A stretch of 64,000 bases of DNA, from the NCBI GenBank assembly GCA_025765595.1, contig JAIVFH010000021.1, positions 248,001-312,000 of the forward strand, read 5' to 3'. A program made the position numbers and the translations under genes. Of this stretch, positions 42,813 through 47,500 are shown piece after piece (the first letter of the stretch is position 1; every line of letters begins with the position of its first letter). Origin of the DNA: Obelidium mucronatum. Its lineage: Eukaryota; Chytridiomycota; Chytridiomycetes; Chytridiales; Chytriomycetaceae. Below the pieces are notes generated by a model. The model had not been told where the DNA came from and did no database searches. It worked only from the letters and a program-made list of their open reading frames with translations.

Positions 42813-44621
42813 TCAACAGTCCAAAGACAACTCCACCACAGACATCGAGAACAGCTCCAAAGACTGAACATCCAAACAGTCCTCCTCTTCCTCCAATAAC
42901 TGAAGAGGAAATTCATCCACCGAGCTATCCTTTTTGCGATAAAGTCTCACACGCGACCCCTGAACTGACTTCTTCAACTCCGACCCATCAAGTTCTGCCA
43001 AACGATAGGAATTCGACCCCTTTTCAACAACCCAGAAAGGACCAAAATACCTCCATCTTAGCTTTCCTCCGACCATTGTGTCCAACTTCGAATCCCTAAG
43101 AACAACCAAATCTCCCTCCTCAACAAACTCGCTTTCCGGCCGCATACGATGGCCTTTACCAAACGCTTCAGCTTGCTTCACCCGAGCTTGCTCGATCGAT
43201 CTTCGAGCTTCCGCCAAATCAACTTCCCGTCTTTCCAACATTCTAATACGATTCACCAACAGTTCCTCCGTAGACATGCGCTTCCACTGAACCAAAGCGT
43301 ACGATTCGATAGTAAATTCAACAGGTAGTAGTGGCTCTTGACCCAAGACCAATTCATAAGGACTGAAACCCGTCGTCCTCGAGACAGTAATCCGCGACGC
43401 AAACACCGCTGCAGCAAAGTGATGATACCACCCTTTAGGCTTCCCTTCGCAAGATTTCGCAATAGCAGCCACCAACGGTGCATTCCCTCTTTCAACTTTC
43501 CCATTCGCTTGTTGAGCATACGCCATCACCACACGAACAATAAACCCAAAACGATCAGAAGTGTCACGAAACACTTTGGCATCCAACTCCCCTCCATCAA
43601 TGACAACTTCCCTTGGTACCCCGTACCGCAAACAGACTTCCTTGACAAACAACGCCACAATAGGTTCCGCCTTCTTCCGCTTAAACACACCACCCTCGAT
43701 CCAACCAGAGATTTCCTCGATAAACAGCGCCATATGTTTCACAGTTCCCTCCATTGAACATAAATCAATGTGCCACCGCCCAAACAACCTAGCAAACAAC
43801 CGTCCATCTTGAACCTCCAACTCCTCGTGATAGCGCACCGGATTCTGTCGCTGACACGCGTCACAGTACCGGCAATGAACTCCCACTTCACGCCAAATTC
43901 CCGGCCACCAATACCTTTCCAGTATTTTAGCTACCGTCGCTGGCACCCCGCGATGTCCACCGCCAACTCCTTCATGCATCTCAGCAACAATCCTTTCACG
44001 TTCAGACTTTAACCCAATCACACGTTGCAACGCCCCACCGCGATTTCTCCGCGGTTTCCGAAACAAAGACCCATCTTCAACACTAAATAGCGCCGCCTGG
44101 CGAACTATTGCCGAACCCATCTCGCCTCCAATGTCATTTGGCAGCGATCCTCGCAGCAAATACCAATAAACGGCCCCCAACCGTCCACTCAAGCCAAGCT
44201 CTTCCATCCTAGATTTACATTCAGACGAATCCCCATTATCGTCAGCCCATTCACTAACAGCTTCCAACGAAAACTTCATCTCCTCAACAACCACACCTCC
44301 ACCAACCTCCAAAACAGCAACCACCGGTATATGGTCAGACCCTCTCGGCCACTCAACATGATCAGCATCAATCACCTTCACGTGTTTCGACACCAACACC
44401 CCGTCAAACCGAAATCCCAGATCGCCCGCACGAGTTGCACTCCACCAAGTTGTGTAAGATACCTTGTTCGGATGAATTACCCGGTAGCAGTCTTGAAAAC
44501 CCGAGTAGAATCGCCCAAGAAGCTGCCGCTCCTCGAGCCGAAACCCAGAATCGACCTTCGGCAGAAGGTTTGGATGAATATCCGCGACCTGTTGCAGCAA
44601 TGTTCCAATCGCAACCAGCAA
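42813..44621 (-). CDS. Retrotransposon pol, end of EEP endonuclease plus integrase
   Basis: The frame starts inside the endonuclease: 'RFDGVLVSKHVKVIDAD' and 'RGSDHIPVVAVLE' supply the last Asp/His motifs of the EEP fold (SDH near 44325-44340). The integrase follows: a zinc-binding HHCC ('HEGVGGGHRG' to 'HCRYCDACQ', near 43850-43975), then the DDE core with D in 'RWHIDLCSM', D in 'EVVIDGGELDAKVF' and E in 'NGKVERGN', and a C-terminal 'LRWRYFGPFWVVEK' tail typical of Ty3/gypsy. All acidic residues are present. No chromodomain is visible. To be expressed with RT it needs a frame change near 44600. Confidence 0.9.
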   Translation of the reverse strand: MLVAIGTLLQQVADIHPNLLPKVDSGFRLEERQLLGRFYSGFQDCYRVIHPNKVSYTTWWSATRAGDLGFRFDGVLVSKHVKVIDADHVEWPRGSDHIPVVAVLEVGGGVVVEEMKFSLEAVSEWADDNGDSSECKSRMEELGLSGRLGAVYWYLLRGSLPNDIGGEMGSAIVRQAALFSVEDGSLFRKPRRNRGGALQRVIGLKSERERIVAEMHEGVGGGHRGVPATVAKILERYWWPGIWREVGVHCRYCDACQRQNPVRYHEELEVQDGRLFARLFGRWHIDLCSMEGTVKHMALFIEEISGWIEGGVFKRKKAEPIVALFVKEVCLRYGVPREVVIDGGELDAKVFRDTSDRFGFIVRVVMAYAQQANGKVERGNAPLVAAIAKSCEGKPKGWYHHFAAAVFASRITVSRTTGFSPYELVLGQEPLLPVEFTIESYALVQWKRMSTEELLVNRIRMLERREVDLAEARRSIEQARVKQAEAFGKGHRMRPESEFVEEGDLVVLRDSKLDTMVGGKLRWRYFGPFWVVEKGSNSYRLAELDGSELKKSVQGSRVRLYRKKDSSVDEFPLQLLEEEEDCLDVQSLELFSMSVVELSLDC

Positions 44622-47500
44622 TGACTTTCAGCCCATGACGCTCGTAATCCCGTAGCTTTTCCAACGCAGCTTGTGTACCTTTTGTAAGGCACCCGTGAAT
44701 CCTTGAGCGGTCGCTTACTCGAGTCCCTTGTGTATGCAGAAGGGAAGTAAAGCACCACTATCACTACTTCACCAAACCGTGTCGCCAAAAATCGACCTTC
44801 CATCTCCACTGCCGTCCATCCATCAAACTTGTACTCCACTTCATCGGCTTCATCGCTCGAGAACAATCCTCGTCTAACCAAAACAGCGACGCCATTTCGA
44901 CCAACACCTCTCGCCCCACGCTTCACCACACCAGAATCATCGCACTCAGCAGGAAAATCCACCGTATACGAAAAATGGGTCGCCGAGAAATCAAACCCAC
45001 GAACTTCATCAAACCCAAACTTCCTTCCCATCCTTGTCTCCTGCATCATGAACACATCAAAGGAGGTAACCAACGTCAGGAATTCCTCCCCCATCTTATC
45101 CACCGCAGAACGGACCGAATTCACATTCCAAGATCCAACTAATATTCGCTTACTAACTTCCCAACCCAAACCCAAAACTTCATCAACGCGGTCTTCCATA
45201 CCGACCGAATCATCTACATCGTCCCCCAAATTCCAGCGACTCAACACATCTGATACTACATTTTTCCTTCCCTCGATATGCACAATAGCGAGTGGTTGGT
45301 AACTCCGTATCGTCAACAGCCAGCGTTTAACTGCTGAATCCAAGGTATCCAACTTTGCCACCGCCCCCACCAATGCAGCTGAGTCTGTCTCAAGAATAAA
45401 CTCCGCCCCCCAAATATACTGATGGAGCATGGTCAATCCCCTTACAGCCGCTAGTACTTCTCGCTTGTACTGGTCATACCCACGCTCGACGTCATTCAAG
45501 CGTCCTGACACAAAACAAACTGCATACCTGCAGCCCGACTCATCTTCTTGTCCAACCCAAGCAGCCCATCCAACTGGAGAACCGTCTACTGTAACAAACA
45601 GTCTTCCTGCTCCTGGACCGTAGCGGATCGGCCTTAGAACTGGACCACACGAAAGGGACTTGGCAATGTCGTCTTTAGCAGCTTGCACCGCTTCCCAGTG
45701 TTTCTTCACATCGGCTTTCCGTTTCAGCATCTTGTACAGGATGTCGGCTCGCGAGGCAAAATTCGGAATGTAGCGCCGGAAGAAGGTCGACAAGCCCAAG
45801 AACGCTCGAACCTCTGGAACTGTTTGCAGAGCTCCCCACTCCGCCAGTTTCTTGGCCTTCTTTCTACCAGGCTGTCTTCCCTCAGCGTTCACCAAATGCC
45901 CCACCACTTCACACTCCTGCGTACAAAAACGCGACTTCAATCCAGACAGCGTAACACCAGCTTCTTGGATTCGCTTCAACACCTTTTGAAGCAACTCAAT
46001 GTGCTCTCGCACAAATTTTCGCACCCCATTCACCACACTACGATCTGCTTCACAAGCTTTCGCTCCCTTCAACACATAATCATCCAGAAATGGCGATATC
46101 TTGTCAGGTACAAAAGGTTGTAAAACCTTAAGCGACGCCCGCTGAGCGATTGCTACTGAGTTCGTCCAACCCATTGGAAGCGTAACCATTCGCATCAAGC
46201 CCAGTGGCGTTGCAATGGCAGTCAAATCACGACTTGCCGGATGTAGCAAGAACTGGTCATACCAAGAGTGGCAATCCATTGGCGAGTAGATAGCCAAACC
46301 AGCGTACTCATTCACAATTTCATCAACGCGAGGCGGAATGCCAGAATCGCGGATAGTGACAGAGTTCAACGGTTGGAGATCTTGAATGAACCGGATAGTC
46401 CCGTCTTTCTTGGGGACCACAAAGAAACTGGCGGCATAAGGCCCGAAACAGGGTTCCAGGATGCCAGCATCAAGTTTCTCCTTCAGCATGTCGATCAGCT
46501 GCTGAAGCTGCGCGTAGGGGATCTTGCGTGGTCGGAATTTCCACGCCTTGTGTGGTACAGTATTGATTCGTATCGGCTCACAGAACTCCGGCTTGATTCG
46601 GCCGCGCTCCTTGACTGAGAAAGAGAAGGCCTTCTCTTCTGCCTTAAGCACAGCACGCAATTCGGCCATTTCCTCCACCGATAGCCAACCCGCTTCCGAA
46701 CACAAGAGGTCAATTCGCTCCTCACTTAGCCCCGCGCCACTTTCGCCACCATCGACACCCCAACCAACAGGAGCCGATCCATCCACCAACGGCTCAGCCA
46801 CCGGCACAACCTTTCGAGACACCGGTTTGTACATAGTGTGCATGTCGACGAGCTGAGAGCTCATTTCGACAACCAGGGTGCTATCAATCTGTTGGCAACA
46901 CCACAACAACATCTCCCCGTCCCCCCACGAATCCACCACCCCTTCTCTCTGCAACTGTATCGCCGCGGTGAGTAGATCACGACTATTCATGTCATGATCG
47001 ATCACTAACACCTCAGCCACCGCTTCGCCGCTCTCCAGATGGCCTTCCTGCTCCAGCTCTCGGCGCAACCGTCCAGTTCCGGCGGCAGCGTAACGAGTAG
47101 CGGTCCAGCCACGCTCACGGCGGTCGGATTGCGGCCAGTTGGCGGCGGCATCGACCGTTGCATCCGGTTGATCAACCGGCAACGCTTCCAGCTCGTCCGG
47201 CGACAGTCCAAACTCAGCCGTTGAACTTCCAGCGTGATCGCGGCGGTTTCGACGACCGATGGGCGGCGTATCGGCGGCGGCAGCGTCCGTTTCGCTCGTT
47301 TGATCGCCGGAGGCACCAGCCAACAACTCCAGATCGCTCGGCAACGGCCCAAACTCGGCCGTTGAACGTCGGGCATCATCCTGGCAGTTTCGAAAGCCGT
47401 TGGGCAGCGGATTGGCGGCGGCAGCAGCGGCGGTAGCGGCGGTTTCAACAGTATGATAAGAGATAAGATCACCAGACTGGGAGTCAACCAATGCATTCAT
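44404..47500 (-). CDS. Retrotransposon pol: RT, RNase H and N-terminal part of EEP endonuclease
   Basis: From the ATG at 47500 a spacer of roughly 260 residues leads into RT ('YAASFFVVPKKDGTIRFIQD', 'MRMVTLPMGWTNS', and 'ISPFLDDYVLKG' holding the catalytic DD near residue 472). RNase H follows ('LFVTVDGSPVGWAAW', 'ILETDSAALVGAV', 'NVVSDVLSRWN' near residue 754). Then, from about residue 783, 'VGSWNVNSVRSAV', 'FDVFMMQETRMG', 'GVAVLVRRG' and 'VVIVVLYFPSAY' are the N, E and Tyr-region motifs of exonuclease III/APE enzymes. 'HGLKVIAGCDWNIA' (GDxN motif) is in the frame at 44404-44664, after a shift near 44675. The frame then ends and integrase is in the third frame. Confidence 0.85.

What the first reader, a model, noticed from the sequence alone, without database searches (positions are those of the whole stretch)
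44315..45150. Exonuclease III/APE-type endonuclease built into the pol of a Ty3/gypsy-type LTR retrotransposon
Directly after RNase H (ending 'VVSDVLSRWN') and before the integrase zinc finger, pol carries the EEP motif series: 'SWNVNSVRS' (Asn), 'MMQETR' (Glu), 'LYFPSAY', 'IAGCDWN' (Asp, Asn), 'RFDGVLVS' and 'GSDHIPVV' (Asp, His). EEP/APE endonucleases normally belong to LINE-type elements, where they nick target DNA for target-primed reverse transcription; LTR elements rely on integrase. Here both nucleases lie in one pol. I know of no described Ty3/gypsy family with this layout. Possible roles are target choice, processing of cDNA ends, or an integrase-independent route. Because the LTRs are identical, the domain was carried by a recently active lineage. 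Motifs are seen; function and novelty are inference.
Basis: partly seen in the sequence, partly recalled or inferred. Interest (0 to 1): 0.93.

Follow-up and report, generated by a model that had tools for sequence, protein, structure and literature searches.

The report
DNA-repair nuclease inside gypsy retrotransposons
Some jumping genes of a chytrid fungus carry, fused into their replication polyprotein, a copy of a DNA-repair enzyme (an exonuclease III/AP endonuclease) next to the usual integrase, apparently picked up more than once, which suggests that the element brings its own tool for repairing or trimming its DNA copy.

Summary
On the minus strand at 42427-50986 lies a Ty3/gypsy-type LTR element (identical 182-bp LTRs, 4-bp target duplication) whose pol reads RT-RNase H-nuclease-integrase. 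In this copy the nuclease is split over three frames, but its allele on contig C579 has RT-RNase H-nuclease in one open frame, and the window copy has nuclease end-integrase in one, so both junctions are real. By profile scores the domain is exonuclease III/APE1-type (xth family), not LINE-type, with catalytic residues kept. Host: the chytrid Obelidium mucronatum. In its assembly 33 of 94 integrase zinc-finger matches have this nuclease upstream: 20 loci just before integrase, 13 before RT. Four database proteins fuse it to gypsy RT-RNase H, three through to integrase. RT trees reject one origin of nuclease-bearing pols, and one origin of the RNase H-nuclease-integrase layout. The domain is under purifying selection; exact 4-bp duplications flank 3 of 5 insertions read. 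So it is most likely an accessory enzyme acting on the cDNA (AP-site or 3'-end processing), comparable to retroviral dUTPase, not an integrase-independent route. That function is inferred. Seven library searches showed no description.

The parts
42427..50986 (-). whole LTR retrotransposon, LTR to LTR
   Evidence: repeat pair and ORFs; same insertion, allelic, on contig C579 (flanks 99.9% over 861 bp and 99.1% over 462 aligned positions)
50805..50986 (-). 5' LTR, 182 bp, TGTGGG...CCACA
   Evidence: 100% identical to the 3' LTR; ends read
42427..42608 (-). 3' LTR, 182 bp
50987..50990 (-). target-site duplication ATGG, 5' side
42423..42426 (-). target-site duplication ATGG, 3' side
50785..50802 (-). 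putative tRNA primer-binding site, TGGTGCC..., 2 nt after the 5' LTR
   Evidence: sequence read; the tRNA was not identified; the end at 50785 is approximate
47800..50877 (-). gag frame, 1025 aa (stop to stop), with a CX2CX4HX4C zinc knuckle (from 49734 downwards, read by eye) and a protease-like LIDSG motif (48208-48222)
   Evidence: no Pfam match at E 0.1
44477..47560 (-). pol frame 1, 1027 aa: RT, RNase H and first part of the nuclease
45896..46417 (-). reverse transcriptase (RVT_1), FLDD motif within 46076-46093
   Evidence: Pfam 2.2e-13, coordinates computed from residues 382-555; motif
45299..45601 (-). RNase H (RT_RNaseH)
   Evidence: Pfam 7.5e-18, coordinates computed from residues 654-754
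44319..45136 (-). exonuclease III/APE1-type nuclease domain, split over three frames in this copy
   Evidence: whole and in one frame in the allelic copy C579
42813..44627 (-). pol frame 3, 604 aa: last part of the nuclease continuing in one open frame into integrase
43839..44009 (-). integrase H2C2 zinc finger
   Evidence: Pfam 1.7e-16; same place
43491..43775 (-). integrase catalytic core: WHID (43764-43775), VVID (43596-43607), GKVE (43491-43502); 55 residues between the Asp, 34 between Asp and Glu
   Evidence: read by eye, spacing and places; Pfam rve itself did not reach E 0.1 in this frame

Best explanation
A Ty3/gypsy LTR retrotransposon whose pol has captured an exonuclease III/APE1-type (xth family) nuclease as an extra subunit. 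Shown: the fusion, the family of the domain by profile score, conservation of its catalytic residues, purifying selection between families, several copies and families, integrase in the same pol, and 4-bp target duplications. Inferred: the nuclease is cut out of the polyprotein with RT, RNase H and integrase, is packaged in the particle, and acts on the reverse transcript. There it would incise abasic sites, remove blocked or mismatched 3' ends, or trim 3' ends so that RT can finish synthesis and integrase receives clean ends. It would then be an element-carried base-excision or 3'-repair function, in the pol slot where some retroviruses carry dUTPase. I hold the architecture and family at about 0.95 and the cDNA-processing role at about 0.5.
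For: Family: profile of 8 element domains against PDB: exonuclease III 5j8n 1.4e-47, APE1 entries about 1e-41, LINE-1 endonuclease 4.7e-9; xth cut-off passed by 9 of 9 element sequences tested, and not by the one LINE-like domain tested, 90.4 against 99.05 bits. Active site, by APE1 numbers (recalled): Y171, N212, D283, D308 and H309 in 13 of 13 element domains, E96 in the 12 and N68 in the 11 that reach so far, D210 in 12 of 13 (gap in the degraded C2 copy). Selection: pS 0.835 against pN 0.171 between the window family (C579) and C2 (184 codons); dN/dS 0.050 for C26 against C196 (270 codons); for C26 against C10b pN 0.165 in the domain, 0.124 in early RT, 0.349 in the linker between. Integration: exact 4-bp duplications ATGG, TTAG, CCCA; D-D-E read. 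Placement in two pol positions and in RT lineages that do not form one clade, like dUTPase in retroviruses (PMC2427051, passages).
Against: No activity is shown. All 13 element domains have Thr where APE1 has F266 and the exonuclease III rows an aromatic residue, and group I has Met or Phe at W280 (positions from an alignment), so AP-site recognition may be changed. The catalytic residues are also present in both LINE-like domains, so they do not tell the subfamilies apart; and in the unrooted domain tree elements plus LINEs stand on one side of a 94/98 branch against the cellular enzymes, so the tree does not place the element domains nearer to cellular enzymes than to LINEs. No repair partner such as a glycosylase was matched in the pol and gag frames scanned with Pfam. 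In the window copy the domain is broken, and C579 and C53 differ nearly neutrally (pN 0.043, pS 0.060). Two of the five insertions with both ends read lack an exact duplication (C26 3 of 4 bases, C493 none); for a sixth, C151, the ends were not found. The Pfam integrase core model is below its cut-off in C26 and C493 and unmatched in C93 and the window.
Confidence: 0.6

Rival explanations
1. Target choice: the nuclease nicks or marks chromosomal DNA (for example at abasic or bent sites) and integrase inserts there.
For: It lies within 0.9 kb before the integrase zinc finger in 20 of 33 loci, and enzymes of this fold cut DNA.
Against: In 13 of 33 loci it lies before RT, away from integrase. Exact duplications are an ordinary 4 bp. 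No shared target sequence was evident by eye in the few flanks read; no statistical test was made.
Confidence: 0.18
2. Primer or RNA processing: exonuclease III family enzymes can cut RNA in RNA-DNA hybrids (recalled), so the domain could help make or remove primers for plus-strand synthesis.
For: The stretches just before the 3' LTR are not long polypurine tracts (window ...GGTTAGTTCGCCAGA; C26 ...GATTGAAAAC; C93/C493 ...TTCAAAGGAC).
Against: RNase H is present in the same pol. TGG follows the 5' LTR after one or two bases, as a primer-binding site would. I could not read the same place in families without the domain, so the tract comparison has no control.
Confidence: 0.14
3. Integrase-independent, LINE-like target-primed reverse transcription.
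For: LINE endonucleases share the fold.
Against: Domain not LINE-type by profile score; LTRs with TG...CA ends and exact 4-bp duplications in three insertions; D-D-E integrase in the same pol.
Confidence: 0.03
4. The domain was captured from a LINE after all and then changed.
For: The unrooted domain tree does not exclude it: elements and LINEs lie together against the cellular enzymes with 94/98, with long LINE branches.
Against: Much higher scores to exonuclease III and APE1 than to LINE-1 endonuclease and to the xth model than a LINE of the same genome gets.
Confidence: 0.04
5. Artefact or passenger: a chimeric assembly or a non-functional insertion of a nuclease gene.
For: The window copy has the domain in three frames; the C579 copy changes frame between nuclease and integrase.
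Against: Same order in many separate contigs and in independent ENA proteins; long open frames across the junctions; purifying selection.
Confidence: 0.03

Closest known systems
Ty3/gypsy (Metaviridae) LTR retrotransposons
   Same: LTRs, gag with zinc knuckle, RT, RNase H, H2C2 zinc finger and D-D-E integrase in that order, 4-bp duplication
   Different: an exonuclease III/APE1-type domain between RNase H and integrase, or at the start of pol in other families
Exonuclease III/APE1 (xth, TIGR00633) DNA-repair nucleases
   Same: whole-domain match above the curated cut-off in the C579 allele; catalytic residues
   Different: part of a retroelement polyprotein; Thr instead of the aromatic residue at the F266 position; separate branches in the tree
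Retroviral dUTPase as a captured domain
   Same: DNA-maintenance enzyme captured on independent occasions and placed upstream of protease, between RT and integrase, or after integrase (PMC2427051, passages read)
   Different: different enzyme and step: repair or processing of DNA already made, not clean-up of dUTP
Kuafuorterviruses (animal LTR lineage)
   Same: the paper says that Exo_endo_phos is present there only sporadically and may be derived from hosts (PMC11673190, passages)
   Different: animal lineage with IADD/VADD/LADD in RT; here FLDD in the window copy, a fungal host, two fixed positions in pol, and conservation across families
Gypsy elements with other captured enzymes: KnitGypsy-Dnmt3 and orchid elements with an m6A-demethylase domain
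   Same: host-type enzyme fused into a gypsy coding frame; Dnmt3 under purifying selection (PMC5890265, passages; PMC9289625, search listing only)
   Different: methyltransferase or demethylase, not a DNA-repair nuclease
LINE (non-LTR) retrotransposons with AP-like endonuclease
   Same: EEP fold and reverse transcriptase
   Different: no integrase and EEP before RT; better score to LINE-1 endonuclease than to exonuclease III in the one LINE-like domain of this genome tested; most LINE-like loci here have RT 1.4-2.05 kb after the EEP and no H2C2

Membership tests
Ty3/gypsy (Metaviridae) | RT and RNase H of the gypsy type, followed by H2C2 zinc finger and D-D-E integrase | tested here: met
   RVT_1 2.2e-13, RT_RNaseH 7.5e-18, Integrase_H2C2 1.7e-16; D-D-E read by eye, spacing computed; the rve model itself not matched in this copy
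Ty3/gypsy (Metaviridae) | LTRs with TG...CA ends, short fixed target duplication, primer-binding site | tested here: met
   4-bp ATGG; TGG two bases after the LTR; tRNA not identified
Ty3/gypsy (Metaviridae) | RT groups with known gypsy elements in a tree | tested here: inconclusive
   43-row RT tree: window RT is in an 18-row set (100/100), apart from 25 other gypsy-like rows; no named reference set of gypsy clades was included
Exonuclease III/APE1 (xth) | score above the curated cut-off of TIGR00633 | tested here: met
   allelic copy C579 116.5 bits against 99.05; the window copy, split by frames, gives pieces of 44.9 and 42.4 bits, below it
Exonuclease III/APE1 (xth) | catalytic residues of the family | tested here: met
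   invariant in the 8 rows of A1; among 13 element domains one gap, D210 in the degraded C2 copy, apart from ends not covered
Exonuclease III/APE1 (xth) | aromatic AP-site pocket (APE1 F266/W280) | tested here: not met
   Thr at F266 in 13 of 13; at W280 Phe in the window family, Met in the other group I rows, Trp in group II
Exonuclease III/APE1 (xth) | AP-endonuclease and 3'-nuclease activity | not testable with these tools
   needs protein
Exonuclease III equivalog TIGR00195 | score above its curated cut-off 182.55 | tested here: not met
   99.3 bits for C579
LINE AP-like endonuclease | closest relatives are LINE endonucleases | tested here: not met
   by score; the tree is not decisive: two LINE domains apart with 99/98, but elements plus LINEs against cellular enzymes 94/98
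Kuafuorterviruses | IADD, VADD or LADD in place of YXDD in RT | tested here: not met
   FLDD within 46076-46093; no tree with their RTs was made

The most novel reading that the evidence does not exclude
Ty3/gypsy elements of chytrid and perhaps other lineages have repeatedly captured an exonuclease III/APE1-type repair nuclease, placing it in two different pol slots, and use it as an element-encoded base-excision or 3'-end repair activity on their own cDNA: a class of LTR elements that carries DNA repair with it.
Probability: 0.45. Interest if true: 0.88.

Novelty: new variant of a known kind. Interest (0 to 1): 0.8.

Why it matters
LTR retrotransposons are usually described as working with protease, RT, RNase H and integrase. 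A conserved DNA-repair nuclease in the same polyprotein, present in RT lineages for which one common clade is rejected (p 2.4e-91) and in two positions, implies recurrent selection for repairing or processing retroelement cDNA. That makes it testable whether abasic sites or damaged 3' ends limit retrotransposition, and it parallels retroviral dUTPase. It also warns annotators: an EEP domain next to RT is not proof of a LINE.

Tried and rejected
LINE origin of the domain: disfavoured by profile scores; the tree did not decide it. Chimeric assembly: rejected. Loss of the domain in relatives C96, C595, C400: in C96 the frame upstream of RT begins inside the linker, so I read it as a truncated copy and not a family without the domain; C595 and C400 were not read. 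One capture against several: the domain tree cannot decide (all element domains on one side of a branch with support 59/11), whereas the RT tree rejects one clade of nuclease-bearing pols; joining the window RT with the start-of-pol clade is not rejected (p 0.228). Whether the start-of-pol domains are one clade is open too (p 0.255). Wider distribution: two scans of viral contigs with P0002 and P0042 confirmed no relative (1 and 16 pattern matches, none confirmed). Structure prediction of the P0002 domain never ran: the machine was busy at all nine tries. Comparison of four C93-family copies for selection failed, as only one was extracted. Target duplication of C151: the LTR ends were not found in the pieces fetched.
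Full report
What is there. The window is contig C21:248001-312000 of a 48.3-Mb assembly in 694 contigs. On the minus strand, 42427-50986, lies an LTR element: 182-bp LTRs identical to each other, ends TGTGGG...CCACA, a 4-bp duplication ATGG, and TGG two bases after the 5' LTR. 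A 1025-aa gag frame holds a zinc knuckle (by eye) and an LIDSG motif. Pol follows with RT, RNase H, the nuclease, H2C2 zinc finger and an integrase core with D-55-D-34-E.

Frames. In this copy the nuclease begins in the 1027-aa frame, passes through a second frame and ends in the 604-aa frame that runs on into integrase. Contig C579 carries the same insertion (flanks 99.9% over 861 bp and 99.1% over 462 aligned positions). Over the element the two differ by 44 substitutions, 35 of them transitions, and 8 gap runs. In C579, RT, RNase H and the whole nuclease lie in one 865-aa open frame, and the frame changes between nuclease and integrase instead. Each junction is therefore seen in an open frame in one allele. 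Whether the frame changes are mutations or assembly errors I cannot say.

Which nuclease. The C579 domain passes the curated cut-off of the exonuclease III model TIGR00633 (116.5 bits against 99.05) but not TIGR00195 (99.3 against 182.55). A profile of 8 element domains finds exonuclease III 5j8n at 1.4e-47 and APE1 entries near 1e-41, with LINE-1 endonuclease at 4.7e-9. The C625 domain alone finds a plant AP endonuclease first (3.8e-20) and no LINE endonuclease at E 0.001. A LINE-like domain from the same genome finds the LINE endonuclease structure 2v0r first (6.6e-9). The eight catalytic residues checked are kept in the element domains, with one gap (D210 in the degraded C2 copy) apart from ends not covered; they are kept in both LINE-like domains as well. 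The aromatic residue at APE1 F266 is Thr in all 13 element domains. Residue numbers are recalled; the columns come from the alignment.

How common. In the own assembly I searched the xth model (91 matches, 20 over the cut-off, all 20 in the loci described here) and the integrase zinc finger (94 matches). I paired 68 of the 91 xth rows with the zinc fingers; the other 23, weaker rows and second pieces of loci already listed, were left out. 33 of 94 zinc-finger matches have an xth match within 6 kb upstream on the same strand: 20 loci within 0.9 kb (21 rows, one locus split) and 13 at 1.9-3.0 kb. I then placed RT and RNase H with 93 of 106 RNase H rows, 51 of 150 RT rows (those on contigs of interest) and 4 rows of the window-RT search: 17 of 33 loci have RT/RNase H before the nuclease, 13 after it, and in 3 neither was detected (C2, C664, C190). 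In these three copies an RNase H tail runs into the nuclease in one frame, so I count them with the first layout. The other 61 zinc-finger matches have no xth match upstream among the rows paired. 34 xth rows have no zinc finger downstream: 21 have RT 0.8-2.05 kb downstream (between centres) and no gypsy RNase H near, as in LINEs (one of these, C167, is rather a fragment of the C93 family), 3 have RT and a gypsy RNase H near, 10 have no RT found. Loci are not independent insertions: C21 and C579 are alleles, and others look like allelic pairs. By the tool's own statement counts are lower bounds.

Two layouts. The C26, C93 and C493 elements have 100% identical LTR stretches (334, 664 and 859 bp compared) and long pol frames that start with the nuclease and go on to RT, RNase H and integrase (1718, 1432 and 1375 aa); the integrase core model is weak in C26 and C493 and unmatched in C93. 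The C625, C601 and C33 elements have, like the window element, the nuclease between RNase H and integrase; RT of this group (C625, C183) was read and is of the commoner gypsy type. I did not see their LTRs. In a database of 5.8 billion proteins fusions also occur in P0001, P0002 and P0005 (nuclease first; in P0005 the truncated domain is just under Pfam's cut-off) and P0042 (RT-RNase H-nuclease; the protein ends before the zinc finger), all from ENA contigs without a name.

Trees. In an RT tree of 43 rows (P0008 left out; P0021, P0024, P0027 and P0040 dropped as partial) the start-of-pol elements form a clade (98/99) and the C625 group another (100/99) far away; the window RT lies in the half of the tree with the start-of-pol elements, among rows labelled as lacking the nuclease. 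One clade for all nuclease-bearing RTs is rejected (p 2.4e-91), and so is one for the window with the C625 group (p 1.4e-5); the window with the start-of-pol clade is not rejected (p 0.228). The label 'lacking' rests on database domain lists, checked by scan for four (P0003, P0006, P0007, P0009); such a list missed the domain in P0005, so some labels may be wrong, and a separate upstream frame would not be seen. In the domain tree of 20 rows the window domain groups with the start-of-pol domains (100/99), the C625 group is separate (100/100), and how these and the cellular enzymes join is unresolved. The tree is unrooted for this purpose: the two LINE domains stand apart (99/98), but elements plus LINEs also stand together against the cellular enzymes (94/98), so the exclusion of LINEs rests on scores. 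So by the RT tree the nuclease entered pol at least twice, or moved between pols; the layout RNase H-nuclease-integrase arose at least twice.

Selection (own Nei-Gojobori script). C579 against C2: pS 0.835 (saturated), pN 0.171 over 184 codons. C26 against C196: dN/dS 0.050 over 270 codons; C26 against C10b: pN 0.165 in the nuclease (pS saturated), 0.124 in 112 early RT codons, 0.349 in 359 linker codons. Other pairs (C93-C493, C625-C601, C601-C33, C625-C33) are saturated at synonymous sites with pN 0.31-0.33. Against: C579 and the C53 copy differ with ratio 0.70 over 164 codons, as expected of copies decaying after insertion; 33 of 43 substitutions in the C53 domain against the window are C to T or G to A, 30 of them at CpG.

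How it works. Exact 4-bp duplications flank three insertions (window/C579 ATGG, C93 TTAG, C10:426k CCCA); C26 has 3 of 4 bases and C493 none. With TG...CA LTR ends and D-D-E integrase this is ordinary integrase-made insertion, so the nuclease is an addition, not a replacement. Enzymes of this family work on abasic sites and 3' ends (general knowledge), and conservation in two pol positions speaks for a role on the element's nucleic acid and against a role tied to integrase alone. The closest parallel is retroviral dUTPase, which sits upstream of protease, between RT and integrase, or after integrase, and was captured independently (PMC2427051, passages read). The role itself is inference.

Print. 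Of nine completed searches of a library of 5.39 million open papers, seven bear on this (the other two, 72 and 85, were on the host and on dUTPase). Their listings and the passages I opened gave no description of such elements. The nearest are a sentence on sporadic Exo_endo_phos domains in Kuafuorterviruses (PMC11673190, passages) and Dnmt3 in a charophyte gypsy pol (PMC5890265, passages). A screen of fungal TE-derived domains names Exo_endo_phos as coming from LINEs (PMC10799480, passages). A survey of fungal LTR elements mentions added domains and complex transposons with many inserted domains, and had one chytrid only (PMC3248453, passages; its supplementary figure was not seen). Most subscription papers and Repbase were not searched, so novelty is likely but not certain.

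Noticed in passing
gag frames: window 48208-48222; L064/L065; L067; L070: The protease-like motif reads DSG in the window element but DKG, DEG or DDG at the apparently equivalent place in the start-of-pol families (by eye); the retroviral-type D[ST]G seems altered there.
   Followed up: no
C53 copy, L004: 30 of 43 substitutions against the window domain are C>T or G>A at CpG, which suggests methylation-linked decay of older copies.
   Followed up: partly
L067 (C93) and L070 (C493) LTRs: LTRs contain variable tandem repeats of about 77-83 bp; in C493 the two LTRs seem to differ in repeat number.
   Followed up: no
47141-47284 and 47273-47425: Imperfect internal duplication (72%) near the start of pol, the place where other families carry the nuclease.
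   Followed up: no
47515-47558 and 47568-47611: 44-nt direct repeat (95%) between the gag and pol frames.
   Followed up: no
P0008, NCBI BDR26DRAFT_986700: The decayed C53 copy is annotated in public records as a hypothetical protein of O. mucronatum.
   Followed up: no
40073-41244: Two frames matching UPF0014 downstream of the element on the same strand.
   Followed up: no
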